Positions 14,453 through 31,661 of a DNA stretch of 37,120 nucleotides are shown piece by piece. Position 1 is the stretch's first letter. Each line of letters starts with the position of its first letter. The notes below the pieces were generated by a model. That model made no database searches and was not told where the DNA came from. It worked only from the letters and a program-made list of their open reading frames with translations. The DNA is from a virus. The stretch spans positions 1 to 37,120 of the IMG/VR virus record IMGVR_UViG_3300046808_000331. The stretch is one strand, 5' to 3'. A program made the position numbers and the translations under genes.

Positions 14453-15004
14453 TTATTTATCGCATGTAATCCATACCTCTTTGTACCCCACGTCCTGTGG
14501 AATAGTCACGGTAATTGGAGCGCTCACGAATAACGTGTTAAAACATGCGGCGGGTACTGTTACCACCACGTCGTTATTAACAACCTCACCCGCTACCTTT
14601 GGCTTGGTATATTTTCCTGACTCCATATCAAATGAGCCCGCGTCCTGAGCCAATTTACAGAGCATTAAAACAACCTTACGTTTTGTTTGTCCCGTACCAC
14701 TTGAAACCAATTTACCACCGTAAATGATTTGTCCTAGTGTTTGGCTGTTTGCGGTTGCCGAATTGAATTTAACGCCGTCCTCATATTCCCCCGCGTCGCT
14801 TGCGGCCTGTGTTACGGGCGCGTATAATTCAAGAAACGTTGTCATTTCCGGCGTGTCGTCGTTTTGGTCCAATGTGAAAGACGTACGCGAAACGCTTGTT
14901 TTAATCTTTTTGTTTAATGCGATTTGAACCGTAGTGGACCATGTCCCCGTGGTTTCGTCGGCTGTAAAAAATACGGAATAATTTCCGCCTCCAATAACTG
15001 CCAT
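14453..15004 (-). CDS. Major tail protein (tail tube)
   Basis: 183 residues from ATG 15002-15004 with MAVIGGGNYSVFFTADETTG; an upstream in-frame start at 15079 would add a segment overlapping the GT2 end and is not favoured. Beta-rich with serine/threonine and glycine, VSRTSFTLDQNDDTPEM in the middle, as in tail tube subunits of siphophages. It lies between the tail terminator/GT2 genes and the chaperone pair, and is followed by a hairpin, consistent with high expression. The assignment is by position and composition. Confidence 0.7.
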   Translation of the reverse strand: MAVIGGGNYSVFFTADETTGTWSTTVQIALNKKIKTSVSRTSFTLDQNDDTPEMTTFLELYAPVTQAASDAGEYEDGVKFNSATANSQTLGQIIYGGKLVSSGTGQTKRKVVLMLCKLAQDAGSFDMESGKYTKPKVAGEVVNNDVVVTVPAACFNTLFVSAPITVTIPQDVGYKEVWITCDK

Positions 15005-15015
15005 TTTATTGCCTC

Positions 15016-15717
15016 TTATGTTTTGTTGTTGTGTAAATATCCAAACGTTTTTACCAAGTAATCCCAATTGCGAGCGCATTTGTTACGTGTGTATTCCCTT
15101 ACAAGTAACTTTGCGTTGCGCTCTGCTTTTTGTTTTTGCACCTCGGGGCCTTGGTTATACCCCAAATGAAATAACATTATTTCGCTATCAGCAAACGCGC
15201 CCAAATCGTACGCGCTTTTGTCTAATGTTTCATGACAAATGCCGTCCCATTTAAGCCCCGCGCTTTTGCGGTGTAAACGCATGTTTGCATTTATGTAACG
15301 TTCCGCGCGTCCGCTCTTATTTACCCCGTCCATGATACCATAAACGGAAACATACGAGGCGGGGGCGTCGGTCTCGTTTAACGCCTCTAAAAACGCCCAT
15401 AAATCCCCGTGTGGCGTCGTTAGGCGTTCGTCCGCATCTATATGTAAAATCCACTCACCACGGGCGTACGCGTCCAATGTATTACGCAAATATGCAAAAT
15501 CAAATTGTTCTGAAAAATCATTGTAACGCCATACCAAACCCGTTAATAATTCAGTATCACCAACCACGTTTAATACGGGTTCCGTAACCGCGGCGGTTTG
15601 CTCTGTCCTGAGCGCCACAATTTGTACTTTATGTTTGGCGGTGGTTTTCGGTAATGCCATACGCCACGCCATTAAATCGTCGTCGTTAGTGTATAGTACG
15701 CAAATGCTCAAATACAT
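15016..15717 (-). CDS. Family 2 glycosyltransferase embedded in the tail module
   Basis: 233 residues. N-terminal Rossmann-type strand MYLSICVLYTNDDD, then WILHIDADERLTTP carrying the DxD nucleotide-sugar/metal motif of GT-A family 2 enzymes, and ICHETLD followed by LFHLGYNQG, as in the C-terminal part of GT2 transferases. There is no membrane anchor, so it is probably cytosolic. It sits between the tail terminator (TAATG overlap, 15717) and the tail tube (12-base gap), unusual for an enzyme. That suggests it decorates a tail or capsid protein. Glycosylation of DNA or host surface cannot be excluded. Confidence 0.82.
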   Translation of the reverse strand: MYLSICVLYTNDDDLMAWRMALPKTTAKHKVQIVALRTEQTAAVTEPVLNVVGDTELLTGLVWRYNDFSEQFDFAYLRNTLDAYARGEWILHIDADERLTTPHGDLWAFLEALNETDAPASYVSVYGIMDGVNKSGRAERYINANMRLHRKSAGLKWDGICHETLDKSAYDLGAFADSEIMLFHLGYNQGPEVQKQKAERNAKLLVREYTRNKCARNWDYLVKTFGYLHNNKT

Positions 15718-16175
15718 TAATTGCTCCGTATGTATTTTGTTCTGAATACCATTAGACTCATGCCCTTGGTATTGTCCTCATTGTATTGTAACGCCTGTGA
15801 ACTAACGTAATGCAATGGGGCAAACTCGGCGGCCTCATAATCGGAAACATACGACGGCAAAATAACGTTATGCAATTTGTATTCCACTTGTTCGCAAATG
15901 TTTGCGAGCGCGTCCCGTACATTGTGTTTGTTGGTTGTGCTCTTTTTAACCTGAGCCCCTACCAATAAATATATTTCCAATTGTCCCATGTTTACCATTG
16001 CGCTGTTATCTTCTAACGGCTCCAACTCTCGGGTGTCTTCGCAATGTAAAATTCCAACGTAATTAAATTGCAATGTGTCCCATTTATCTACTGTAATAAC
16101 GTCGTAAACCCGCACGCCTTGTAATTCTCTGAGCAAATCAGTTACGCCGTTTAACGCTTTTGTTTCTCTAGCCAT
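15717..16175 (-). CDS. Putative tail terminator/tail completion protein
   Basis: 152 residues, starting MARETKALNGVTDLLRELQG and containing VEYKLHNVILPSYVSDYEAA. Size, alpha/beta pattern and place after the gp10-like gene and before the tail tube (with a GT2 inserted between) fit the siphophage tail terminator, the ring that caps the tube and joins it to the head. The start overlaps the upstream gene by 25 bases, with GGAAATAATGAA ahead of the ATG. Confidence 0.6.
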   Translation of the reverse strand: MARETKALNGVTDLLRELQGVRVYDVITVDKWDTLQFNYVGILHCEDTRELEPLEDNSAMVNMGQLEIYLLVGAQVKKSTTNKHNVRDALANICEQVEYKLHNVILPSYVSDYEAAEFAPLHYVSSQALQYNEDNTKGMSLMVFRTKYIRSN

Positions 16176-16609
16176 TTCATTATTTCCAATGTTATTTGGT
16201 ATTTCACGGCGTTTGTAAATTTTTCTTTTGTGGTCTTGTCGAATTGTTCCAACGCGGGTAATAAATACGGACGCTTTGGTATTGTTACTGCTTTGTTACG
16301 GCCCGCACGTCCGCCGTATTCATGTATCGCGGCGTATGGTAATGCGGAACCATAAATAACATTAAAACCCGTTGGGCTCGTTTCAATTCTAAATATATTA
16401 CTTGCATCATTACGGCGCAATGATTTGAACAACGCGCCCGTTATGCGTCGCAATTTGTCCCCCGTGTTCCGCGTGCGCTTGTCGGCCTTTGTGGCGTAAA
16501 CCATATTGGCGCCTGCGAGCGCTTGTAACTCGTCGGTATATTCGTACGCAAAATCATTGTATAACGGTTGTAATTGCGCTTGTAACTGAGCAACATTAAA
16601 CAGAGCCAT
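16151..16609 (-). CDS. HK97 gp10-like head-tail joining/tail completion protein
   Basis: 152 residues from ATG 16607-16609 (TAATG overlap with the connector gene); this start is better than an in-frame ATG at 16651. The signature PYAAIHEYGGRAG followed by KRPYLLPALEQ matches HK97 gp10 and the virion morphogenesis proteins of siphophages, where the YAxxxExG stretch is highly conserved. It joins tail to head after packaging. Order connector, gp10-like, tail terminator is the standard one. Confidence 0.85.
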   Translation of the reverse strand: MALFNVAQLQAQLQPLYNDFAYEYTDELQALAGANMVYATKADKRTRNTGDKLRRITGALFKSLRRNDASNIFRIETSPTGFNVIYGSALPYAAIHEYGGRAGRNKAVTIPKRPYLLPALEQFDKTTKEKFTNAVKYQITLEIMKWLEKQKR

Positions 16610-17235
16610 TAAACCGCCGGAATAACAAATTTTCGGAAATGCTTTTGCCAATCTATATTTTCCTTTAACGCTTGGGAAACGTTGGCGCCGTTGCCCCCGC
16701 TGTTTACACTACTGAGCCCAAACCAATTACCGCCGTCGGGTGACTGCTTGTAAGTTAACGCCGCCATTTCTGTAATGCCTTGCAATATTGCGTACGGCAT
16801 TGTGGCGTCGGTATAACCCGTTTGTAATGTGGCTTTAAATTGTCCGTTTGTCTTATTCCTGAAAATAAGATAACATGCGAAATCCTCAGTTTGAAACGCA
16901 TAATCTACGGACGGGAACGCCGCGTACGTTGCAAATTCATTTTCACGCCACTCGAGAGCCGTAACGGTAGTGTTTGCATAGTATGGTATGTATTTCCATA
17001 CGTGGTTACTTTCAAGCCCGTGACGGCCCGCGTTGGCGTAAAATTGGTATGTTCTGTTTACTTGTCTTAACGGTTGCCCACAAAATTGTTCCGCAATTGT
17101 ATAACACGTCGTAAACAAATCGTCGAACCATGAATACAAGGCGGTTTCCTCAGCGGTCGGGTCACCGCTAACCTCTAAATTTAAAAACTTTGTAAACGCT
17201 GTAAATTGTCGTGGGTACGCGCTTGTATATGGCAT
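16609..17235 (-). CDS. Head-tail connector (gp6/gp15-like adaptor)
   Basis: 208 residues. The first half is helical with TAEETALYSWFDDLFTTCYT followed by IAEQFCGQPL; the N-terminal helices and the IAEQFxGQPL segment are typical of the HK97 gp6-type adaptor that binds beneath the portal. The second half is beta-rich and aromatic. It lies between the capsid-proximal small gene and the gp10-like gene, matching the family's usual place. The ATG is at 17233-17235, four bases after the stop of the 56-residue gene. Confidence 0.75.
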   Translation of the reverse strand: MPYTSAYPRQFTAFTKFLNLEVSGDPTAEETALYSWFDDLFTTCYTIAEQFCGQPLRQVNRTYQFYANAGRHGLESNHVWKYIPYYANTTVTALEWRENEFATYAAFPSVDYAFQTEDFACYLIFRNKTNGQFKATLQTGYTDATMPYAILQGITEMAALTYKQSPDGGNWFGLSSVNSGGNGANVSQALKENIDWQKHFRKFVIPAV

Positions 17236-17239
17236 GGTT

Positions 17240-17410
17240 TTATTTTTTCTTTGTTATTGTTTTTGCGGGCTTTGGTTCCGCTTTTGTTTCTGTTTCTATT
17301 TCTTTGCAAACGCCTTGGGAATATAGGCGGGCGTATTCTTCGTTGTTAAACTGCGAATACTGACCCGCCCGTAATCCGTACGCGTCAACTAACATTATTA
17401 CGTTAATCAT
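17240..17410 (-). CDS. Hypothetical 56-residue head protein
   Basis: Frame MINVIMLVDAYGLRAGQYSQ onward, ending in a lysine/threonine-rich tail (TKAEPKPAKTITKKK). It sits between the capsid gene and the connector, where siphophages often carry a small decoration or linker protein with a basic tail. The ATG (17408-17410) follows the capsid stop by 13 bases. The function is inferred from position only. Confidence 0.6.
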   Translation of the reverse strand: MINVIMLVDAYGLRAGQYSQFNNEEYARLYSQGVCKEIETETKAEPKPAKTITKKK

Positions 17411-17423
17411 TACGCGTTCCTAA

Positions 17424-18623
17424 TTAGGTTGCACTTGTTTTCAATACGCCAATTGCCGTTGGTGCGGGGAACGCAATGCCAATACGTTCCACAACTTCAA
17501 TACCTTTCTGATGTGTTCCGCCTAATCCTGTGGCGCCGAAATACTCTTTGTACTCGTTAACCATAATATCCTCGCGAATACCAAGAATTGAGAACTGAGC
17601 AAAGTCTGCGTACAATGCACAACCTTTGTTCGCGGCGCTTGTTGGGAACAATGAGTCGGGGACAACGTGCATAGGACGGCCAAATGGCGTTACGTATGTG
17701 TTACCCTCCAATGCTGTTAGGCCAATTGCCGGAATATCCATTGGTTGTAATTGGTTCCATATTGGGCGGTCTTGTTGGTCCATTTCCTTTATGATGTGAC
17801 CAAATACGCTTTGCGGAACAACAAACACGCCGTTTGCGCCAACTGTGGAATTAAGAGACAAACGCAAGTTAATAAGGTCGGTCCATGAAATTGCGGAAAA
17901 CGCTGTTTTGCCACTATTAGACGCACCGCCCAAATATGTTACCGTGGAACCTGAGATATTTAATGCGCCTGTGAAATTTGGAGCGGTCCCATTACCGTTA
18001 AAAAATTGCTCGTCTTCTTTGCCCGCAATGGCACGGCCCAAACCGTTTGTTACGTAATCCAAAAACGCGGGGGTTGCGTCCTCTAATTGTTCAATTGAAA
18101 GGATAGCGCCGCCAACAACTTTTTGGCTTTGTAATGTGGTTTGTGTAAAAAAGTTAGCGGAGTCGGTTACTGTTAAACCTGAGCCCTCAGCAACAACGGC
18201 CGCGGTAAAATTACCACTTGACGCCAAATACTCTTTGTTACCTCTCATTGGGTAAATCTTAGCAAGGGCGCGCGCGTAACCAAAACGGTCCGCATAATTC
18301 ATAATTTCCTCAACCCAAAACGCGGGTACAACCGCACCACCTTGGGCCGTCGTTCCTGTGTTGAAATTTGCACGGGTAACGTATTTGTTGTTTGCATCAC
18401 GCGCAATAGACTCAGCGCCTGCGTGGTCGCCTTTGTGCTTTGCGTTAATGTAATCAGCAATAACGCGTGCTTGGTCGCGGCGTGCGTCGTGGTCTGCTTT
18501 AATCTTGACAAACCCCGTTACGTGTGTTGGGTTTGCATTACGCAAAATGTCTTGCGCTTTCTCGTTTGCTTTTGTTTCCACAACCATTTTTAATTGGTCG
18601 GGTGTAATTACAATATTTTCCAT
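17424..18623 (-). CDS. Major capsid protein, HK97 fold
   Basis: 399 residues. An N-terminal helical delta domain of about 100 residues (MENIVITPDQLKMVVETKAN onward) is followed by VTRANFNTGTTAQGGAVVPA, the typical start of the mature HK97-type shell protein. FWVEEIMNYADRFGYARALA, LSIEQLEDATPAFLDYVTNG and AIAGKEDEQFFNGNGTA match the E-loop and P-domain pattern. The protease most likely cleaves near residue 95-105. It follows the prohead protease by 14 bases; the order protease, capsid, connector is standard. Confidence 0.93.
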   Translation of the reverse strand: MENIVITPDQLKMVVETKANEKAQDILRNANPTHVTGFVKIKADHDARRDQARVIADYINAKHKGDHAGAESIARDANNKYVTRANFNTGTTAQGGAVVPAFWVEEIMNYADRFGYARALAKIYPMRGNKEYLASSGNFTAAVVAEGSGLTVTDSANFFTQTTLQSQKVVGGAILSIEQLEDATPAFLDYVTNGLGRAIAGKEDEQFFNGNGTAPNFTGALNISGSTVTYLGGASNSGKTAFSAISWTDLINLRLSLNSTVGANGVFVVPQSVFGHIIKEMDQQDRPIWNQLQPMDIPAIGLTALEGNTYVTPFGRPMHVVPDSLFPTSAANKGCALYADFAQFSILGIREDIMVNEYKEYFGATGLGGTHQKGIEVVERIGIAFPAPTAIGVLKTSAT

Positions 18624-18637
18624 TTTTATTTACTCTA

Positions 18638-19645
18638 TTAAATAAGGTTTAACAACTCGTTATCAGTTAATTTTTTTGCGGGTTTAATTTCAAATCCGCG
18701 GTCCTGAGCAATTGCATTGGAAATTTTTTTGTTACCCTCTGCAATCATTTGAAGCCCCTCTGTAATCATGCCATACGTTGTGGCGCTTATCTTTTTGCCC
18801 GCTCTGTTTTGATACGACGCCGCTACGGGTGCGGGTTCGTTTTCCGTTGGCATTGGTTCCGTCGCTACGGGCGCCACAACCTCGGGGGCAACCTCGGGGG
18901 CGTCGCCATTTAATACGGCTAACATTGCGTCACCCGCCGCCATTGCGCCCGCCTCAGCGGCTTTAATCGCGTCGTCCTCTGCTATGCCCAACTCGTCACG
19001 TAAAAACGTCGTGGCGGCCTCAATGAGCACGGGCATAAATTGCTCACTTAACGCCGTTGTTTGTTCCGGTGTCAACATTTTATTTACCTTTTTGGCTTTG
19101 TTAAATATGGTTTCTAAATTTCGTTTTTTATTCGTTTTTTTATGGTCACGTTCCAAACGCTTTTTAAGTAGTGCTTGTCTATTGGCGGGAATACTAACAA
19201 TAGAAAATTCCACTAACTCAGATTTGGTATAAAACGTAACCGTTTCACCGTCTACGTTTTTTTCCTCCCATTCCGTCGGAATTATACCAACGCTCACGGC
19301 GTTTACATATCCGTTACGGACCAAATCCGCAACCTCACACGCTTCGTCTGTAATTCTGTGTATTTGTAGTGTGGCCTCTAAATTTTCACCATTCATTGCA
19401 AACCCCAAACACTTACCAATTGGCCACTCGTCGGCCTCATGCTGTGCCAACACAATTGGGTTATTTAGGTACGCCGTATAATCAATTCCACTTGGAACAA
19501 TTACGGTTCCGTATCTATCAATTTCCGGCGTGGAAACTACAAATGTGTATATGTCCTGTGGGGCATCTTTGCCCTCATGTTCGTTACCCTCATACCCCTT
19601 ATAGTCACGGGGTTCAAGCCGGTACGCTCGTTTAATTATTTCCAT
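18638..19645 (-). CDS. Prohead protease fused to scaffold domain
   Basis: 335 residues. The N-terminal 170 residues are a U35/HK97-type prohead serine protease: VLAQHEADEWPIG (catalytic H), VNAVSVGIIP (catalytic S) and LVEFSIVSIPANRQAL. The rest is acidic and helical (about residues 195-335, MLTPEQTTALSEQFMPVLIE onward) and ends in lysine-rich helices, the pattern of a scaffold carried on the same protein. It cleaves scaffold and capsid N-termini during prohead maturation. The ATG follows the 39-residue gene by one base. Confidence 0.9.
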   Translation of the reverse strand: MEIIKRAYRLEPRDYKGYEGNEHEGKDAPQDIYTFVVSTPEIDRYGTVIVPSGIDYTAYLNNPIVLAQHEADEWPIGKCLGFAMNGENLEATLQIHRITDEACEVADLVRNGYVNAVSVGIIPTEWEEKNVDGETVTFYTKSELVEFSIVSIPANRQALLKKRLERDHKKTNKKRNLETIFNKAKKVNKMLTPEQTTALSEQFMPVLIEAATTFLRDELGIAEDDAIKAAEAGAMAAGDAMLAVLNGDAPEVAPEVVAPVATEPMPTENEPAPVAASYQNRAGKKISATTYGMITEGLQMIAEGNKKISNAIAQDRGFEIKPAKKLTDNELLNLI

Positions 19646-19646
19646 G

Positions 19647-19766
19647 TTATTTATTTATTTCATTTATGATAAATTTGGCCGCGTCGTGTAAAATTTTTTC
19701 CGTTGGCGCGTCGTCCATTGATACGTTAGTAAAATCCTTTTCATTTTCCGTGCTTTGCTCACTCAT
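19647..19766 (-). CDS. Hypothetical 39-residue acidic peptide in the head module
   Basis: Frame MSEQSTENEKDFTNVSMDDA onward, 39 residues, overlapping the portal gene end by 8 bases and ending one base before the protease ATG. It is acidic and polar at the N-terminus, then helical (TEKILHDAAKFIINEINK). It fits the tight head-operon packing; a tiny assembly factor is possible. No family recognised. Confidence 0.58.
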   Translation of the reverse strand: MSEQSTENEKDFTNVSMDDAPTEKILHDAAKFIINEINK

Positions 19767-22566
19767 TTGGCAACCTTTCGTAAATATATTTATATTTTTT
19801 TGCCATACGTTGGTTTACTATATGGCTAATTTCCCGCCATACTTTGCCCGTATCCTCGCCGTCCTCGGTCCCCAACAAATCGTACAAATCATGCATATCG
19901 TCGGGAAAATTTTCTTTGCCTGAAAAATTGCGTGTTGACGCTTTAGATTGGATATCTAAAATAAATTTTTCGTAATCGTTCTCTAGTGCGTCGGTTTGTT
20001 TCTCAAGCAAAGACATAGAGCCCTCGTTATACGTCCGCCCTTGAGACTCCCAATATTCCTTGAAATTTTGGCGGAACTTGTAACCGGTTTTCGGGCGCTG
20101 TAAAACGTATGTATATTCACTACCAACGGCCCGACATTCCGCCCTATTCATGCTCATGGAATTTAATATATCTTGAGGGGAAAACGACGACCCGCTTGGG
20201 TGGTTATGAGTCAATACAGTATTTCCCGCTTTTGTCAATGCGCCCATTTGTTCACGCGTCATTCCTTTGTAAACCGAAACGCTGCTTTTTTCGCCCGTTA
20301 CCTCTGCAATTACGTTTCCGTCGTAATCCGTGACCATACCCATTTCGTGGGTTTTTAGGTTTCTGTATTTAGCTTCAAAATCCGTTACGGCTTTTAATTG
20401 CCCGCCACGTCCGCCCGCAATAACACGCGGTACATTGGAACCGCTCGGAGCATTTGGCGCGCTTGTTCCTGTGCTTGGTTTTTGGACTGTTACCGTTTCG
20501 GTTGTTTGTCTTTGCACGGGGAACAATTGACAACGGCAATTAACCGCCCCGCTTGCACTCAGCCCGCCACCTAACGGGCGCTCGGTTTTCTCATAACCAA
20601 CAATAATTTCACCAACGGCGCCCTCGTCTGTTATTCCTTTCTTCATTACGGGCACGCTAAAAAAACCGTCGGGGTCAACCTCTTTGCCCTCCATAATTTG
20701 GTGACTTGGCCGCACTCTATTGTCTTGTTCTGTTAACCAAATGTATGTATAACCCAAACGCTTATACGTTGCCAATTGCGAACCCGCCGTAACGTTTGCG
20801 CTTACCGTGTTTGCAATCGTGCGCAATCTACTTTGGCTGTAAACCGTGTCGAAACGGTTTGTTAATATACTGAGCAATTCGCTTTTATCTTTCATGGCGT
20901 TTGCTTGTATAACCCCCGCCATTTCCGTTTTAATTGTTTCCATGCTCTCAGTAATTTTGTCCGCGCTCTCACGTGCCAAACCTTGTAACGCTTTGCCGTA
21001 TTCACCGTCCAACGGTACGGCGTTGCCCTCTAATTGCGTGGCCACGGTTTGGGAAACATTGCGGACCGCGTCGTTAATCACGCTTTGTATTTTGTCCGCT
21101 GTTTTCTCACTCAGTTCAATACTACCTATCTGCGTTTGTCCGCTATTAACTTTGTCCGTTATTTTTTTTTTTAATTCGCTTATGGCGGTTGCGGTGGCGT
21201 CTTCTAGTCGTAATTGGTTTTCCGTTGTTAACCCGTCGTAATTGCGCCAGAAATCAGCGCGGGCCTCATTGGTATTATACGGGAAACTACGACGCGCCAC
21301 GGGCAATTGTGGGGCGTTTGTGCTTATTTGCGCGGGCTTCGTTTGCGGTTGTCCGCCCGTTGCCATATCTAATGGCAAAAACCCTTGAGCAATTAACGGA
21401 ACGTCGCCATTTTGAACGGGCGTAAATCCACGTTCCGCACGCGCCTCGTTAATTGTCTTGATACCCCAACGCAATTGAAATTCCTCTTGTTTCAAATCGG
21501 CGTCCAAATCTTTGTAAACATACGGCTCGGGTTCAATTAAAACGTCGTCCTCATATCTACGGAAATGGCGCGTTAATTCCTCTGCAATGTACAACGCCTC
21601 GGGGTCAATTGTGTTTTGTCTAAATATCTGAAATTGAACCTCTGCGGTTGCGCGGTTTTGAAATTCCCCCGTTAACATGCCCGGGGGCACGCCGAAAACC
21701 TGAGCAATTTGGGAACGTGTGTCGGCGCTTACGGCGTCGTAACTTATGGACAACTCACCCTTGGGCGGTAAATTTAGTTTCATTCCCCCGTGTAACAACG
21801 CACGTAGTTTATATTTAGGGAGCGCCTCGTTCCAACCGTTTTTAATCCGCTCCCATGTTTCTTGGTCCACGGTGTCGGGGTGCTCTGCTATCAATGGCGG
21901 AACGGTATTGTTTTCAAATAACCGTTGCAAATATGCACTAACCTCTCTATCAATGTTCGCATATTCCAAGGCGGCCGTAACCAACCCAACGCCTAACATA
22001 TTCATTCCCACAATTTCCTCGGGGCGTGCGGCGGGGTGAATACGAGCCAAATGGACCATTTCACGCTCGGGTATATGTATGTTTCCGTCCTGAGCACTTT
22101 GGTATATGTAACCGTCTACAAATTTTTCGGAACCCTTAATGATGCGTACGCGCGTCGGGTTCAATACCCACATTTGTAACGGTACATGGTAACCGTTGGT
22201 CGGCGTCCAAATAAACGCGTTACCGTTAATAGATAACCAATTTTCAATATAGGAATAAATCTGAGAGCGCACAAAATACGGGTTTGGGTTTGCTAACAGA
22301 CGTGAGGCCCAATGGTCCGCGCCCAATTCTGAGCGGTCAAAATTTTGCTCCTTGAACGTATTAAATTTAATTGCACTGAGAGCGTTTGCCCTATGCTGTA
22401 AACATGCAAAGACGGTTCCACGTAACGAGGCCTCTGTTTCATTCCCCGCGCTCACGGAACCAATGTTACGTTGGTTGCCCATACGGTCGTATGGTAACAA
22501 ACCGCGCTTTTGGCTTGGTAAAACCGCGTCTGCAATCCTTTGCCTAATGTCGTCCAATATACTCAT
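19759..22566 (-). CDS. Portal - MuF - JAMM-like fusion protein, 935 residues
   Basis: Residues 1 to about 400 are an HK97-type portal: TVFACLQHRANALSAIKFNT, then SQIAQVFGVPPGMLTGEFQN. Residues about 430-690 form a MuF/SPP1-gp7-type head morphogenesis domain with TYIWLTEQDNRVRPSHQ followed by NCRCQLFPV. A linker rich in P, S, T and G (about 690-720) leads to a third domain with LTHNHPSGSSFSPQDI (about 785-800), an H-x-H ... S-x-x-D pattern like JAB/JAMM metalloproteases, though one residue shorter than the RadC form. Portal, the DNA channel, and MuF are normally separate genes. The JAMM-like end may cut an injected or capsid protein, or act in the host. ATGA overlap with TerL fixes the start. 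Confidence 0.82.
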   Translation of the reverse strand: MSILDDIRQRIADAVLPSQKRGLLPYDRMGNQRNIGSVSAGNETEASLRGTVFACLQHRANALSAIKFNTFKEQNFDRSELGADHWASRLLANPNPYFVRSQIYSYIENWLSINGNAFIWTPTNGYHVPLQMWVLNPTRVRIIKGSEKFVDGYIYQSAQDGNIHIPEREMVHLARIHPAARPEEIVGMNMLGVGLVTAALEYANIDREVSAYLQRLFENNTVPPLIAEHPDTVDQETWERIKNGWNEALPKYKLRALLHGGMKLNLPPKGELSISYDAVSADTRSQIAQVFGVPPGMLTGEFQNRATAEVQFQIFRQNTIDPEALYIAEELTRHFRRYEDDVLIEPEPYVYKDLDADLKQEEFQLRWGIKTINEARAERGFTPVQNGDVPLIAQGFLPLDMATGGQPQTKPAQISTNAPQLPVARRSFPYNTNEARADFWRNYDGLTTENQLRLEDATATAISELKKKITDKVNSGQTQIGSIELSEKTADKIQSVINDAVRNVSQTVATQLEGNAVPLDGEYGKALQGLARESADKITESMETIKTEMAGVIQANAMKDKSELLSILTNRFDTVYSQSRLRTIANTVSANVTAGSQLATYKRLGYTYIWLTEQDNRVRPSHQIMEGKEVDPDGFFSVPVMKKGITDEGAVGEIIVGYEKTERPLGGGLSASGAVNCRCQLFPVQRQTTETVTVQKPSTGTSAPNAPSGSNVPRVIAGGRGGQLKAVTDFEAKYRNLKTHEMGMVTDYDGNVIAEVTGEKSSVSVYKGMTREQMGALTKAGNTVLTHNHPSGSSFSPQDILNSMSMNRAECRAVGSEYTYVLQRPKTGYKFRQNFKEYWESQGRTYNEGSMSLLEKQTDALENDYEKFILDIQSKASTRNFSGKENFPDDMHDLYDLLGTEDGEDTGKVWREISHIVNQRMAKKYKYIYERLPNE

Positions 22567-23720
22567 GTAAATACGCCCGGTGTCTTTTTAATAGATGCAA
22601 ACGCGTAACCCAATGCGTCCACGTAATCGTCGTGTTTGTCCTGTGCGGTGCCCGTAAAACTTAGTAATTCCTCTGTAAACTCAGGTGGTAACGTTCCATA
22701 ATGGAATACCTCGCGGCGCTCATATCGTGCCTCTACGGGCTGAAATCGTATAACTTTATCACGGTCCGCCCTCATTCCAACCACGTTTAACGTCGTGTTT
22801 CGTTTCAATTCTTGGACCAACCACGCTTGGGCTTGGTTGTTCTCTATTGCAATAACCTTGGGGTTCCATTTGTTTGCGTATTCGATAACCTTTGCCCCAA
22901 TGTTTACAAACGTCATGCGGTCGCGGAACGCGTCAACTACAACCACCTGTTTATCCTCTGTTAACCCAATAACCACCAACGCCGTATAATCAGCCGTTTC
23001 TTTTTGGCTTATCGCCAAATCCACGCCCATGTAAAATGTAACGGGCTTTTTTGTGTTGTCAATTTTGAGCCATTCCCGTTTAATCTTTGCGGCCCCTCGG
23101 TCCACGTACTCGGCTAAATATTCCTGAGCAAAAACAACGCTTGGTAATATGAGCCGTTGTCGTTCAATTTCCGCATGTTTCATGCGGGGGTTATCGTATG
23201 TGGTATAATGAAACGACGCCCAATCTGTGTATAAATTACTAAAATTGTCCAACTCAGAAAAATGGTTTTTGCCATTTGGCGTGGAAAAAAAATAACCGTC
23301 GCCCTCATAATCTGTGAGCATTGGGCTTAAAACCTCTTCCCATGCGTTTTGAGCGTTTTCACAATACGCCCACTCGTCACATATCATGCGGTGAAATGCG
23401 TTACCTCTGAGCCCGTCCGCACGCCATATACCCGTTAACGTGAGCGTGGAGCCGTTCAATGTTATTTCCCCCCACTTGATTGTGGCGCCTAACGGGGTAA
23501 ACAGTTTCACGGCCTCTTTGTAACGCCCTTGTAATTCTTTGTAACTTGGGGTCGTGTATAACACATTGGTGCCCGGCTCTTGTAACATTTTTTCGATAGC
23601 AAGGGCAAATGCTAGGTAACTTTTGCCAAACCGTCGCCCGCTTCGTACCACGTTAAACCGCTTACGGTTATTCACTATTTCCAATTGTTTTGCGTGTGGC
23701 TCTGCTATTACGCGTTTCAC
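22563..23720 (-). CDS. terL: Terminase large subunit
   Basis: 385 residues. Walker A SGRRFGKS (27-34), Walker B/DE segment MICDEWAY (near 113), and an RNase H-type nuclease domain with FYMGVDLAISQKETADYTAL, ending in HDDYVDALGYAFA, the last acidic motif of the nuclease centre. It translocates and cuts concatemeric DNA at the portal. The start overlaps the TerS stop and the stop overlaps the portal start, both as ATGA, so TerS-TerL-portal are translated together. Length is in the normal range for compact terminases of this type. Confidence 0.95.
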   Translation of the reverse strand: MKRVIAEPHAKQLEIVNNRKRFNVVRSGRRFGKSYLAFALAIEKMLQEPGTNVLYTTPSYKELQGRYKEAVKLFTPLGATIKWGEITLNGSTLTLTGIWRADGLRGNAFHRMICDEWAYCENAQNAWEEVLSPMLTDYEGDGYFFSTPNGKNHFSELDNFSNLYTDWASFHYTTYDNPRMKHAEIERQRLILPSVVFAQEYLAEYVDRGAAKIKREWLKIDNTKKPVTFYMGVDLAISQKETADYTALVVIGLTEDKQVVVVDAFRDRMTFVNIGAKVIEYANKWNPKVIAIENNQAQAWLVQELKRNTTLNVVGMRADRDKVIRFQPVEARYERREVFHYGTLPPEFTEELLSFTGTAQDKHDDYVDALGYAFASIKKTPGVFT

Positions 23721-24082
23721 TTGTCGGCCTCATTGTTACCACCCCATACAAATACCATTTTATTAGCATTTGTGTTATCACGGGTTTGTCCTGAGAGTCG
23801 AGCCGCTTCGTCCTCATTTGCTATTAGTTTCATTAACGCCACTTGCAACGTAGGGTTATCGGACTTATACCATTTTTTTCTCATGTTCGATTTCATGGAC
23901 ACGCGGTTTTTTTCGAGCGCGCTTTTAATATTGTCCATTTCGTCACTACCAATAGGGAAAAAATCGTAAAACGTTTGTTTCCTGAGCGGTAACAACGCTA
24001 CAATATCCTCAATAAATATGAGGGCGTGTTTCTCTATTATTTCCAATGTTTGGGCATATACTTTTTTCTTGTCGTACGCCAT
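23717..24082 (-). CDS. terS: Terminase small subunit
   Basis: 121 residues. An N-terminal helix-turn-helix-like region (KHALIFIEDIVALLPLRKQT) leads to TFYDFFPIGSDEMDNIKSAL and a basic helical stretch (SMKSNMRKKWYKSD), then NEDEAARLSGQ. Small helical protein directly upstream of TerL with an ATGA overlap; the YDFFPIGSDEMD pattern is one I associate with small terminases of Bacteroidetes phages. It binds DNA and presents it to TerL. Confidence 0.83.
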   Translation of the reverse strand: MAYDKKKVYAQTLEIIEKHALIFIEDIVALLPLRKQTFYDFFPIGSDEMDNIKSALEKNRVSMKSNMRKKWYKSDNPTLQVALMKLIANEDEAARLSGQTRDNTNANKMVFVWGGNNEADK

Positions 24083-24083
24083 T

Positions 24084-24614
24084 TTATTTATTCCCCAATA
24101 ATACCCATACGGCTTGTTCCGGCGTGCTTGCTATCTCAGCCAATTGGCTTTTTACGCGTGCGTAATCGTCCGCCGTATATTCTAGCGTTATTGTGTTTGT
24201 TTGCTTGTCTTGGTCCGCCTCTATTTGCGGGCCGTTTTCCTCTGTATTAACGGGTAAATCTAACCCCCACGCTTCTAACTGTATTTCGTCCCACTCGTTT
24301 GCTAATTGCTCATGGTCCCATTCCCCGTAACTTACGTTGTCTTTTACTAAAAACTCGGCGCATTGCTCGGGGGTCCAATCGTCCGCCAATATCACGGGTA
24401 ATTCAGTAAACCCCAATTCCTTTGCGGCCTTTAACCTCATGTTACCACCTAATACCATAAACGTACCGTCATGGTCACTAATGACAATGAGAGGGCGTTT
24501 GTTTAGCATATCCGGGAACGCTTGTAAACTTGTTTTTAGTTTGGCGTATTTGTCCCGTGAAATCGTGCGCGGGTTCCGTGGGTTTGGTTTAATCTTTTTA
24601 ATTGGAACCGTCAT
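24084..24614 (-). CDS. ParB/Srx-type nuclease-like domain protein
   Basis: 176 residues from ATG 24612-24614, in ATGA overlap with the upstream gene; this rules out the longer in-frame start at 24677. KKIKPNPRNPRTISRDKYAK followed by VLGGNMRLKAAKELGFTELP is the ParB-like signature with the GGNxRxxAxxxLG core. In phages this domain is found in adapters of methylases, nucleases and NTPases that bind DNA. It precedes TerS by one base, so it may act in packaging or DNA modification. Without a helix-turn-helix it is unlikely to be a partition protein. Confidence 0.82.
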   Translation of the reverse strand: MTVPIKKIKPNPRNPRTISRDKYAKLKTSLQAFPDMLNKRPLIVISDHDGTFMVLGGNMRLKAAKELGFTELPVILADDWTPEQCAEFLVKDNVSYGEWDHEQLANEWDEIQLEAWGLDLPVNTEENGPQIEADQDKQTNTITLEYTADDYARVKSQLAEIASTPEQAVWVLLGNK

Positions 24615-25087
24615 TGCCTTGCGCCCCAAATACCTAGTAACGTACCTAGTGCAAACGCTACGGGTCCCCATGTCCACGCGCTGTTATTCTCAGTGGGTAC
24701 GGGAACCGTAATTGTTTGTACTGAGTCGGGGCGGGGCCTGAATACCAAACTAAAATTGGCTTTGCCCTTATTATACGCAAATGCCATATTTACGGTGTCC
24801 TTTGTGGTTGTTATCACGCTATCCGCCTGAGCAATAAACGACGTGTCCCCGCATGGAATATTTACGGGGCGTTCAATGAAATACGTTGTGTCTTTATGTT
24901 TAACCATTACCGATTTTACGCGCACGGTGTCCCGTACGGTAACGGGGCGTTCAATTACGGCCGTAACTGTGTCCCGTGTATGTTTCGTGCCCTGTGGGGC
25001 ATTACAACCGCGTCCAAGGTGAACGCCTAACAATAGACACAAACCCCCAACCATTATGAGCGTAATGCCATAGATATTTAGCCTCAT
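24611..25087 (-). CDS. Membrane-anchored, repeat-rich protein (spanin-like)
   Basis: 158 residues. A hydrophobic N-terminal helix (ITLIMVGGLCLLLGVHLG, residues 8-25) acts as anchor or signal, then a polar, threonine/valine-rich region with RDTV and KDT repeats, then a second hydrophobic stretch near the C-terminus. This is the outline of inner-membrane spanins of Bacteroidetes phages: short anchor plus extended periplasmic arm. It could carry the last lysis step, away from the endolysin at 29528-30085. The gene is ATGA-linked on both sides. Assignment is by architecture only. Confidence 0.5.
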   Translation of the reverse strand: MRLNIYGITLIMVGGLCLLLGVHLGRGCNAPQGTKHTRDTVTAVIERPVTVRDTVRVKSVMVKHKDTTYFIERPVNIPCGDTSFIAQADSVITTTKDTVNMAFAYNKGKANFSLVFRPRPDSVQTITVPVPTENNSAWTWGPVAFALGTLLGIWGARQ

Positions 25088-25935
25088 TCCACAACCCCGT
25101 TATTAATCCACATATTGCGTACGGCTCCGTCCGCTTGGACAATTGCAAAACCATGGTTACTATTGCTATGGGGCATGTAACCTTGGCGTAACTTGCATAA
25201 ACAACCCGTGGTGTATGTTTTAATGTATTTACCACCCAATCCCCTACCATGTGAGAAACTTGTACGGTGAACGTGCCCCATTACGGTTGTCTCTAATGTT
25301 TTGAGCAATAACGCGCGTGCGGGGTTAACGCCCCCACCTACTTTTACCTCGTGCCCATGAATTATATGGGTGTCCGCAACCCTCATAAATTGCGACGTTT
25401 CCGCAAACTCTATGCCAACGTCCGTTAAATTTAATAACTTTGTCCAATCTACAAGCCCCGCCATTTCCTGAGCGTTTGCCATTAAATACGCTTCTAGTCT
25501 GTCCTCATGGTTGCCCGCTTTGAATATAATACGGGCGCTCGGGAAATCCGCACGTAATCCACGTAAAAACGGTTTCACCATTTCGAGCTCGTCCAAAAAC
25601 TTAGGCATATTTGGGTTTTTGGGGTGTCTTGATATACGGGCTCCGTCTAATATATCCCCATTTAAAATTATGTTTTCTACTTGTTCTGAGCGTGCATATT
25701 GAACCGCCGCAATTACCGCCTGCTTATCATGTATTCCGAAATGAATATCAGATAACACGGCCGTTTTACCCTCTAATTTAATAGGGGGCGCAACCTCGTC
25801 GCGTCCGTCGGGCATATCCGCCAAATAATCAGGAACCGCCGTATATGCCAAACCGTTGCGCCTGTGTAACACGCGCTCGTACTCGTCACGCGTCACCTTG
25901 GGGCGTATAAAATCGTTTATTTGCTTTTTAGCCAT
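25084..25935 (-). CDS. Calcineurin-like metallophosphoesterase
   Basis: 283 residues. The complete metal-binding set is present in order: AVLSDIHFG (D-x-H), ILNGDILDG (GD), FKAGNHEDR (GNHE), IIHGHEV (GH) and TVMGHVHRTSF (GHxH). Such phage enzymes hydrolyse phosphomonoesters or diesters, and some act on RNA or DNA ends. ATGA overlap with the spanin-like gene. I see no second domain besides a short N-terminal extension of about 55 residues. Substrate unknown. Confidence 0.9.
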   Translation of the reverse strand: MAKKQINDFIRPKVTRDEYERVLHRRNGLAYTAVPDYLADMPDGRDEVAPPIKLEGKTAVLSDIHFGIHDKQAVIAAVQYARSEQVENIILNGDILDGARISRHPKNPNMPKFLDELEMVKPFLRGLRADFPSARIIFKAGNHEDRLEAYLMANAQEMAGLVDWTKLLNLTDVGIEFAETSQFMRVADTHIIHGHEVKVGGGVNPARALLLKTLETTVMGHVHRTSFSHGRGLGGKYIKTYTTGCLCKLRQGYMPHSNSNHGFAIVQADGAVRNMWINNGVVE

Positions 25936-26116
25936 TATTTGCTATGCTTTGCAAAATGATTTGTTTGGCGTCGTCCTCTGTTCCATTTATGCCCGTTTCC
26001 GTGTTCCATAAATTGCCATTTTTATCTATAAATTTCCATAACATTACAGGAACGCCATTGTCATTTATTGCCTCGGTTTGTTTTTCTATTGTCAATATCA
26101 CGAACCTACCCTCCAT
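25928..26116 (-). CDS. Hypothetical small protein, 62 residues
   Basis: From ATG 26114-26116 with [20 protein letters not shown]; this start is chosen over a longer frame to 26179 because the extra segment would overlap the fibre gene heavily. Beta-rich, mildly acidic, ending [12 protein letters not shown]. It overlaps the fibre gene by 19 bases and the phosphoesterase start by 8. Possibly a fibre accessory or chaperone; nothing in the sequence proves it. Confidence 0.6.
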
Positions 26117-27096
26117 CCTATCAATTGTGAACCGGTCATAACGACCACTGCATTTGAGTCCTCTGTTTCTTGCGCCCATCTAAATGCAATGCTCCCCGCC
26201 CCGCCAAATCTACCCGTTCCATAAATTACCATTGCCTGCCTTTCGCTTGTGCTCCACAAACTATAATTTACGCGGAACCCTTGCGCGTCAACGGTTACGG
26301 GTTGCGTCCATGATGCGCCCCACGAACCATTACCGCCTGCGGACATTTCCACTTTCAAACCTTGTAACCCCGCATTTGATTTTCTAACTATAAGCCACAA
26401 TTCCCAACGATATATGCCAATTGTTGTGGGGGTAAAAAATAAATGGTTATCAGGTTGCACCGTTGCACTATTATTTACGGTTTCGTCCGCTGTTTTTGTT
26501 ACAACAAAATCAGGTGAACCCGTGCCACCACTTGCAGAAATTGTCGTGCCCGTTAATGACAAACCACTACCAATTGTTATTTCCTCAATATCACCCGCGC
26601 CCGCCGACGCACGCCCCAATAAACGTGACGTGTTCGTAACGTTTTGTATTTTTGCGTACGTAACCGCATCATTGTCAATTGTCCACGTGGCGCCCGTTCC
26701 ACTTACCGTTATGTCTCCCTTGTCTCCGTCGGACACGCCCCCGCCGCTTGTCGCCAAAGTGGTGCCCGTCATGGTTAACCCCGTGCCTAATGTTATTTCT
26801 TGCACGTCACCCGCGCCACCGTCACCGCGGCCCAACAATTTAGAGCCCGTACTAACGTTTTGCATTTTTGCGTACGTAATTGCATCATTGTCAATTGTCC
26901 ATGTATTCCCCGACGAACTTACGGTTATGTCCCCCTTGTCTCCATCCGCCAAACCGCCCGTAATTTTAATACCCCCCGCCGTTGACCCGTCGCCAATGTA
27001 CAACTCTTTTGTGTCCGTTGTAAATATTGGTTCACCCTCGGCGGGCGTTATTGCGGTGCGTCCTGCATTTGTTCCGCGTCTTAGTTTTAATGCCAT
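26098..27096 (-). CDS. Tail fibre with Mtd-like N-terminus and duplicated shaft
   Basis: 332 residues. The N-terminus [12 protein letters not shown] then [17 protein letters not shown] fits the Mtd N-terminal / hyaluronidase-type fibre start (RRGT ... GE ... DT ... IGDGS). Residues 51-122 and 123-189 are two tandem copies of a 72-residue shaft unit starting [10 protein letters not shown] and including TWTIDNDA(I/V)TYAK(M/I)QNV. The C-terminal 140 residues are beta-rich with WRWAQ-type aromatics ([20 protein letters not shown]) and could be the binding tip. A fibre with repeated shaft and distinct head is expected to bind a host surface glycan or protein. Confidence 0.82.
26524..26946 (-). repeat. 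Tandem 216-base repeat in the fibre shaft
   Basis: Two copies of the 72-codon unit (26731-26946 and about 26524-26730). Conservation is visible at DNA level: both hold TTTTTGCGTACGTAA, GCATCATTGTCAATTGTCCA and TTACSGTTATGTCYCCCTTG on the plus strand, so duplication is fairly recent or kept alike by selection. Confidence 0.8.
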
Positions 27097-31492: not shown

Positions 31493-31580
31493 TGCCTTTG
31501 CTCCAATATGGTTGTTTATGCTGTTTTAATCATTCAATAAACGGAATAATTGTAGTTATTGCGGTTTATATCATTCATTG

Positions 31581-31661
31581 TAGTTAGGGCGGGACTCGAA
31601 CCCGCAAAACATAAGTTAGTAAATTTTAAGTTTACTGCGTTTGCCATTTCGCCACCTAACC
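31581..31661 (-). tRNA. tRNA-Leu(UAA)
   Basis: 81 bases folding as a class II tRNA: acceptor GGTTAGG / CCTAACT, D-arm with AATGGC loop, anticodon stem GTAAA / TTTAC with loop CTTAAAA (anticodon TAA at positions 34-36), a 13-base variable region, and a T-arm GCGGG TTCGAGT CCCGC. The discriminator base is A; CCA is not encoded. It lies seven bases after the methyltransferase stop, inside the operon. It would read the UUA/UUG leucine codons. Confidence 0.9.

What the first reader, a model, noticed from the sequence alone, without database searches (positions are those of the whole stretch)
19759..22566. Portal, MuF and JAMM-like domains in a single 935-residue protein
Portal and MuF are two separate genes in most phages. 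Here they are one protein, extended by a third domain with an H-x-H-P...S-x-x-D signature (LTHNHPSGSSFSPQDI, about residue 785-800) close to JAB/JAMM metalloproteases but with spacing one residue short of RadC. MuF proteins often carry C-terminal toxin or enzyme domains that enter the cell with the DNA, so this could be an ejected protease or a capsid maturation enzyme. If every portal subunit carried the domain, the head would contain about 12 copies.
Basis: partly seen in the sequence, partly recalled or inferred. Interest (0 to 1): 0.72.

Follow-up and report, generated by a model that had tools for sequence, protein, structure and literature searches.

The report
Phage portal carrying swappable toxin-like enzyme
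A virus of bacteria carries, on the end of its DNA-entry protein, a swappable zinc-enzyme-like domain that looks like a weapon delivered into cells, with a tiny overlapping gene that may be its antidote; the delivery idea is known for other phages, but this enzyme family and its small partner genes appear undescribed.

Summary
The 935-residue ORF (minus strand, 22566 to 19759) is HK97-type portal + MuF + a C-terminal JAMM-type domain. The portal-MuF fusion is ordinary: 80 of 80 related IMG/VR loci have it, and portal-MuF fusions are published for Microbacterium phages. The C-terminal domain is the interesting part. It belongs to a widespread family absent from Pfam, with conserved Glu...HNHP...Ser-x2-Asp; 'one residue short' is the family norm (47 of 91). 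AlphaFold2 predicts it confidently; its nearest folds are RadC and JAMM peptidases. Close relatives either lack the cassette cleanly or carry a different allele. The same domain ends bacterial WXG100 (type VII) and VgrG-like proteins, where a homologous immunity-like gene follows directly (17 of 25 Paenibacillaceae loci). This points to an exchangeable toxin/effector of the MuF polymorphic-toxin kind, not a capsid-maturation enzyme; a separate S78 prohead protease gene follows. A new lead: a 39-aa ORF overlaps the end of the gene and comes and goes with the cassette. Small partner ORFs with a hydrophobic-Asp-Asp motif are enriched after JAMM genes and may be antidotes. Activity, substrate, release from the portal and antidote function are untested.

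The parts
19759..22566 (-). Portal-MuF-JAMM fusion gene, 935 aa
21430..22416 (-). HK97-type portal domain (residues 51-379)
   Evidence: Pfam PF04860, 9.9e-41, 140.4 bits
20524..20856 (-). MuF domain (residues 571-681)
   Evidence: Pfam PF04233, 6.6e-8, 33.7 bits; phrog_2662 covers portal and MuF together, residues 43-689
20407..20508 (-). Thr/Ser/Pro/Gly-rich linker (residues 687-720); the release site, if there is one, would lie here (inference)
   Evidence: sequence
19762..20406 (-). RadC-like JAMM domain (residues 721-935); Glu741, His787, His789, Ser796, Asp799
   Evidence: AlphaFold2 pLDDT 90.1, pTM 0.87; Foldseek top five = RadC 2qlc; conservation
19647..19766 (-). 39-aa acidic ORF overlapping the 3' end of the fusion gene by 8 nt; candidate antidote/partner
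   Evidence: enrichment control; no Pfam family
19652..20515 (-). Cassette (JAMM domain + small ORF) replaced by about 34 nt in close relatives
   Evidence: blastn breakpoints against L007, L008, L010
18638..19645 (-). Prohead serine protease (Peptidase_S78), separate gene just downstream
   Evidence: Pfam PF04586 1.4e-7
17424..18623 (-). Major capsid protein
   Evidence: Pfam PF05065 3e-25
22563..23720 (-). Terminase large subunit
   Evidence: Pfam PF17289, PF03237

Best explanation
The protein is a structural portal-MuF fusion whose C-terminus carries an exchangeable effector cassette: a RadC-like JAMM (metal-dependent hydrolase) domain, a phage-head version of a polymorphic toxin. Shown here by sequence and model: the three-part architecture, a JAMM-type fold with the conserved Glu/His/His/Ser/Asp set, clean gain/loss and allele swap of the cassette between near-identical phages, use of the same domain at the C-terminus of bacterial secreted-type proteins with a linked immunity-like gene, and a tiny overlapping ORF that travels with the cassette. 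Inferred: the domain binds a metal and is active; it is packaged in the head as part of the portal ring, is released by cleavage in the linker (for example by the prohead protease) and enters the next host with the DNA, where it cuts a host target to help infection or to block defence or rivals; the small ORF product restrains it in the producing cell and is left behind.
For: Domain fold: pLDDT 90.1; Foldseek PDB ranks 1-5 are RadC 2qlc, prob 0.96-0.99, E 0.0098-0.047; VIA rows are headed by JAMM enzymes, best Z 7.1 for PfJAMM1; hhalign to 11 RadC sequences prob 88, E 3.4e-7, active-site residues aligned. Cassette: L007, L008 and L010 lack it with flanks 87-90% and 94-95% identical; L006 has a swapped allele (40-46% aa) between 94.6% and 94.7% identical flanks. 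Of 80 related portal-MuF fusions, 77 end within 15 aa of the last CxC and 3 carry JAMM. Carriers among 95 scanned proteins: Phage_Mu_F 41, Phage_min_cap2 8, portal families 7, WXG100 2, VgrG-like Phage_GPD 1. The domain is C-terminal throughout. Immunity-like gene directly downstream in 17 of 25 Paenibacillaceae JAMM loci; co-occurrence in 295 genomes 15 both, 8 JAMM only, 7 gene only, 265 neither, Fisher p 1.2e-14. Small ATG-start partner ORF (up to 100 aa) after 45 of 87 JAMM genes against 43 of 313 other genes in the same loci; hydrophobic-Asp-Asp motif in 20 of those 45 against 1 of those 43.
Against: No biochemistry. The nearest folds are weak matches: no PDB hit at E <= 0.001 and VIA Z below 8. 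A domain fused to all portal subunits cannot be ejected unless cut, and no cleavage was shown. The window has no homologue of the 157-184-aa immunity-like family. A small ORF after one gene end is not rare: 27% of random positions pass the rule. The hydrophobic-Asp-Asp motif is missing in a third allele (L026) and in many partners. 8 of 25 Paenibacillaceae loci lack the immunity-like gene, and 7 genomes have the gene without a JAMM match. One Cys-type partner homologue (Brevibacillus phage Jenst) has no JAMM within 3 kb. Co-occurrence counts ignore relatedness of the genomes.
Confidence: 0.68

Rival explanations
1. Capsid-maturation or assembly protease: the JAMM domain cuts scaffold, portal or MuF during head assembly.
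For: It sits on a head protein inside the procapsid; whole-protein matches include phrog_595, annotated 'head maturation protease', covering residues 482-793.
Against: Close relatives lack the domain and 77 of 80 clade members lack it. A separate S78 protease gene follows. phrog_595 is not among the families listed for 87 members scanned as the domain alone, so that match most likely comes from the MuF part. The domain also ends bacterial secreted-type proteins.
Confidence: 0.07
2. Counter-defence deconjugase: the domain removes ubiquitin-like tags that CBASS or Bil-type systems put on phage or host proteins.
For: Among the VIA rows are Cap3 (9ild, Z 6.2), BubCD (9ea4, Z 5.6) and a bacterial Ubl-deubiquitinase complex (8tyx, Z 4.8).
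Against: These rows only reflect the common JAMM fold. Profile comparison finds RadC (E 3.4e-7) and nothing against 12 Prok-JAB sequences (E 0.94). Linked immunity-like genes in bacteria fit a toxin better than a deconjugase.
Confidence: 0.12
3. The domain is an active effector but works from within the producing cell or as a tethered enzyme at the portal, and is never delivered.
For: The portal fusion makes release non-trivial; standalone versions exist in phages, one of them in a head-tail gene cluster (L017).
Against: Use on WXG100 and VgrG-like carriers implies trafficking.
Confidence: 0.13

Closest known systems
MuF polymorphic toxins of phages (Jamet 2017 PMC5576092, one section and passages read; Bxa/Apk2 in PMC11699363, passages read)
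   Same: MuF domain in the packaging module, variable C-terminal enzyme domain shared with other secreted toxin families, partner genes downstream, presence/absence between relatives.
   Different: MuF is fused to the portal; the cargo is a RadC-like JAMM domain not named in the passages read; the window's partner is only 39 aa and no homologue of the larger immunity-like family is present.
RadC (JAB clade, PF04002)
   Same: Closest profile and Foldseek match; HNHPSG motif and active-site order.
   Different: Below the Pfam cut-off (14.3 against 22.1 bits); H-D spacing one shorter; found on head and secreted-type proteins.
Tox-JAB-1 and Tox-JAB-2 (DUF4329) toxins (Zhang 2012 PMC3482391, passages read)
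   Same: JAB-fold domains at the C-terminus of polymorphic toxins with immunity genes; those authors suggested nuclease rather than peptidase action.
   Different: The table lists no MuF carrier for them; motif H[ST]H in Tox-JAB-2 against HNHP here; only 1 of 87 members touches DUF4329 (E 0.0079).
Portal-MuF fusions (Microbacterium phages EA3, EA5, EA8, EB, PMC7302621, passages read; Geobacillus phage GBK2)
   Same: Portal and MuF in one protein.
   Different: No JAMM cassette in GBK2.

Membership tests
HK97-type portal | PF04860 over cut-off | tested here: met
   140.4 against 39.1 bits
MuF superfamily | PF04233 over cut-off | tested here: met
   33.7 against 29.6 bits
MuF polymorphic toxin | gene in the portal/terminase packaging module | tested here: met
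   terminase directly upstream, protease and capsid downstream
MuF polymorphic toxin | variable C-terminal domain, present/absent or swapped between relatives | tested here: met
MuF polymorphic toxin | toxin domain shared with other secreted toxin families | tested here: met
   WXG100 2, VgrG-like 1 of 95 proteins; loci L094, L107, L109
MuF polymorphic toxin | adjacent immunity gene | tested here: inconclusive
   a 39-aa overlapping ORF is present; no homologue of the 157-184-aa family in the window
MuF polymorphic toxin | toxicity of the C-terminal domain | not testable with these tools
   needs expression
MuF polymorphic toxin | temperate phage | tested here: inconclusive
   no integrase or repressor named among the proteins scanned; not every ORF was scanned
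JAMM (EXnHS/THX7SXXD, wording from the abstract of PMC300881 in the listing) | conserved Glu, two His, Ser and Asp in that order | tested here: met
   90, 91, 91, 89 and 91 of 91; the two His were fixed by the scan pattern
JAMM (strict motif) | H-S/T-H and exactly 7 residues before Ser | tested here: not met
   H-N-H and 6 residues; in the family, residues between second His and Asp: 9 in 47, 10 in 14, 12-24 in 30 of 91
JAMM fold | fold match | tested here: met
   moderate scores, E no better than 0.0098 and Z 7.1
RadC (PF04002) | Pfam cut-off | tested here: not met
   14.3 against 22.1 bits
Tox-JAB-2 (PF14220) | Pfam match of the window domain | tested here: not met
   not listed at E <= 10 (HMMER's filters drop most weak matches); 1 of 87 relatives at 0.0079
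Head maturation protease (phrog_595) | match of the JAMM domain itself | tested here: not met
   not among the families listed for 87 domain-only members

The most novel reading that the evidence does not exclude
A previously unnamed RadC-like JAMM toxin family is delivered both by phage heads (on MuF and on at least three kinds of portal) and by bacterial secretion systems. It is controlled by several unrelated small partner proteins that share a hydrophobic-Asp-Asp motif, which may plug the metal site. In this phage every portal subunit would carry one toxin copy, kept silent by a 39-residue antidote that stays behind at assembly.
Probability: 0.3. Interest if true: 0.8.

Novelty: new variant of a known kind. 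Interest (0 to 1): 0.62.

Why it matters
If right, it names a widespread JAMM family with no Pfam model, gives a biochemical handle on what RadC-like JAMM domains cut (an open question; the authors of PMC3482391 and PMC5512222 suspect nucleic acids rather than ubiquitin tails), and offers a natural near-isogenic set (with cassette, swapped cassette, no cassette) to test what MuF cargo does for a phage. The small partner proteins, if they are inhibitors, would be short natural JAMM inhibitors.

Tried and rejected
Capsid-maturation protease: see rivals. Frameshift or assembly error: rejected by full-length relatives. Direct PDB sequence search found nothing for the domain: single sequence, best E 0.15, an unrelated sensor domain; profile, best 0.29, Cullin-1. 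Absence of other families from the VIA list is not evidence against them. Partner-first search with the tight Cys-type set gave 9 loci, all with a JAMM gene just upstream, but 7 of the 9 are contigs already found through JAMM, so only 2 are independent. No match for the Clostridial-type partner in phage records, and the Dorea partner found only itself. Literature: ten searches listed no paper whose title or shown abstract describes a JAMM/JAB domain as MuF or portal cargo; subscription papers, preprints and supplementary tables were not seen, so the toxin-domain list of PMC5576092 (Table S7; 20% metallopeptidase in its text) could still hold it.

Rows dropped before counts: 111 ORFs reduced to 88 by similarity. 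L095 (frame broken in the domain) and L061 (runs off the contig) were left out of the domain alignments; L021 and L102 were left out of A4 (91 of 93 listed references). A5 also drops L135 and four phage-collection rows, and adds L005. 80 of 86 confirmed loci were returned, and 80 of 150. 12 of 20 Prok-JAB loci passed the motif filter. In one search I counted two pieces of one broken gene (L154/L164) once: 26 rows, 25 loci.
Full report
1. The observation. The gene is on the minus strand, 22566 down to 19759, 935 codons, open throughout. Pfam places Phage_portal at residues 51-379 and Phage_Mu_F at 571-681, both above their curated cut-offs; the last 246 residues match no family over its cut-off, RadC being the nearest relevant one at 14.3 bits against a cut-off of 22.1. 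The motif LTHNHPSGSSFSPQDI is at residues 785-800, with nine residues between the second His and the Asp. In the direction of transcription the order is terminase large subunit, this gene, an S78 prohead protease and the major capsid protein.

2. The portal-MuF fusion is ordinary. PHROG family 2662 spans portal and MuF together (residues 43-689). Geobacillus phage GBK2 has a 685-aa portal protein that aligns with residues 52-644. The Microbacterium phage paper PMC7302621 (passages read) reports portal-MuF fusions in several clusters. In IMG/VR, all 80 loci returned for the portal-MuF part keep both in one frame; 77 end within 15 residues of the last CxC motif and 3 (two alleles) go on into a JAMM domain. 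The search confirmed 150 loci and returned the best 80.

3. The C-terminal domain is an optional, swapped cassette. Relatives L007, L008 and L010, about 80% identical in the portal-MuF part, stop right after it. On DNA, L007 matches the window at 20516-25849 (87.6%) and 14680-19651 (95.2%), and the 864 bases between are replaced by about 34. L006 matches at 94.6% and 94.7% on both sides but has a different allele of the last part (635 against 639 bases; 40-46% amino-acid identity over the domain). In a further carrier, L011/L026, the portal frame is broken in that record; I left it so. Between the window and its 98% relative L005, codon differences in the domain are 26 synonymous to 8 non-synonymous over 215 codons, against 92 to 4 over 400 in the portal part: the domain is kept as protein but seems to evolve faster.

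4. It is a JAMM-type domain. A six-sequence profile found 86 confirmed relatives among 112 pattern matches in IMG/VR (80 returned) and 34 among 61 in bacterial genomes. After removing near-duplicates, 88 ORFs remained of 111. In an alignment of 91, Glu741 is kept in 90, His-Asn-His-Pro in 91, Ser796 in 89 and Asp799 in 91; the scan pattern fixed HNHP, but not the Glu, Ser or Asp. AlphaFold2 on residues 715-935 with 87 sequences gave pLDDT 90.1 and pTM 0.87. Foldseek's first five PDB rows are RadC 2qlc (probability 0.96-0.99, E 0.0098 to 0.047), and Pyrococcus JAMM1 follows at ranks 9 and 11; no row reaches E 0.001. VIA-align's rows are headed by JAMM enzymes, best Z 7.1 with rmsd 3.4 over 112 residues; under 8, this is supportive rather than proof. 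Profile comparison aligned the Glu, HNHP, Ser and Asp with 11 RadC sequences (probability 88, E 3.4e-7) and found nothing against 12 Prok-JAB sequences. I therefore call it RadC-like JAMM, not RadC.

5. Who else carries it. Of 95 full-length proteins scanned, 41 match Phage_Mu_F, 8 Phage_min_cap2 (a second MuF family in PMC5576092), 3 Portal_Mu, 3 Phage_portal (the window among them), 1 Phage_portal_2, 2 WXG100 and 1 Phage_GPD, a VgrG-like protein. The domain lies at the C-terminus throughout: HNHP is 66 to 166 residues from the end in the tails measured. Fusion to a portal thus occurs with HK97-, Mu- and lambda-type portals. About a quarter (22 of 88) have under 120 residues before the domain, some of them cut by a contig end.

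6. Immunity-like gene in bacteria. In Paenibacillus, Brevibacillus and Chryseobacterium loci the next gene codes for a homologous 157-184-aa protein, behind WXG100 (L107, L109), VgrG-like (L094) and phage-packaging-module (L126/L097) carriers alike. In 295 Paenibacillaceae genomes the JAMM family is in 23 and the immunity-like family in 22; both are in 15, Fisher p 1.2e-14 without correction for relatedness. Of 25 JAMM loci there, 17 have the gene directly downstream on the same strand and 8 do not. By their first residues most of those 8 look like MuF-type genes or fragments, but I did not scan these against Pfam one by one. In Chthoniobacter flavus (L134) two near-identical 92-aa ORFs follow the JAMM gene, as duplicated immunity genes often do (recalled, not from a call). 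The family is not in Pfam, and its model (pLDDT 85.2) matched no solved fold at E <= 0.001.

7. The tiny overlapping ORF. In the window an ATG-started ORF of 39 codons (19647-19766) overlaps the fusion gene by 8 nt and ends one base before the ATG of the protease gene. L006 has 40 codons and L026 39 codons at the same place, with diverged sequences, and the cassette-less relatives have only about 34 nt there. One such ORF proves little: 27% of random positions pass the rule with a 30-codon minimum. As a group it stands out: 45 of 87 JAMM genes are followed by an ATG-started ORF of at most 100 codons, against 43 of 313 other genes in the same loci, and a hydrophobic-Asp-Asp motif is in 20 of those 45 against 1 of 43. 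In 58 partners of up to 200 aa the motif is in 26, against a mean of 10.1 and a maximum of 19 in 1000 shuffles; related partners inflate this, and I chose the motif after looking at the partners. The partners fall into seemingly unrelated groups: acidic 39-55 aa, Cys-rich 68-80 aa, Clostridial-type 59-86 aa, and the 157-184-aa family. That such different partners share the motif suggests a common docking site, perhaps the metal site: a hypothesis only.

8. Mechanism. Best supported: exchangeable effector/toxin cargo of the MuF polymorphic-toxin kind (PMC5576092, PMC3482391, PMC11699363; passages read). Delivery, release and activity are inferred. The main gap is release: MuF fused to the portal cannot leave the head whole, so either the linker at 687-720 is cut or the enzyme acts while tethered. 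Substrate is unknown; the authors of PMC3482391 and PMC5512222 argue that RadC-type and toxin JAB domains may act on nucleic acids, and the RadC-like profile fits that line better than a deubiquitinase.

9. Novelty. Portal-MuF fusions, MuF toxins and JAB-fold toxins are each known. This JAMM family as head cargo, its use across phage and secretion-type carriers, and its small partner genes were not found in ten literature searches of one open-access library. I rate it a new variant of a known kind.

Noticed in passing
window 26098-27096 (-): Protein with Mtd_N and DUF5907 repeats; relative L010 aligns there only in patches of 73-85% identity, as for a variable receptor-binding gene. No reverse transcriptase was named in the proteins scanned.
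   Followed up: no
L134 5345-5623 and 5647-5925: Two near-identical 92-aa ORFs behind a 1189-aa JAMM protein in Chthoniobacter flavus; looks like a duplicated partner gene.
   Followed up: partly
L129 6229-7749: In a Chryseobacterium MAG a second copy of the JAMM protein's N-terminus begins behind the immunity-like gene.
   Followed up: no
L029, L030, L040, L045, L048, L063, L069, L074, L080: Small Cys-rich protein (CxxC...C-x-AF...IP...G...H...G) right after JAMM genes; a distant copy in Brevibacillus phage Jenst stands without JAMM nearby.
   Followed up: partly
L114, L122, L133, L136: Standalone 180-215-aa JAMM gene followed by a partner gene of 63-86 aa with a (Y/F)D(D/N)RI motif, in bacterial genomes; looks like a two-gene toxin-antitoxin-like unit.
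   Followed up: partly
window 31580-31661 (-): tRNA-Leu (taa) gene in the phage.
   Followed up: no
L127 724-4402: A 1028-aa VgrG-like gene is followed by its own immunity-like gene, just upstream of a second JAMM/immunity pair.
   Followed up: no
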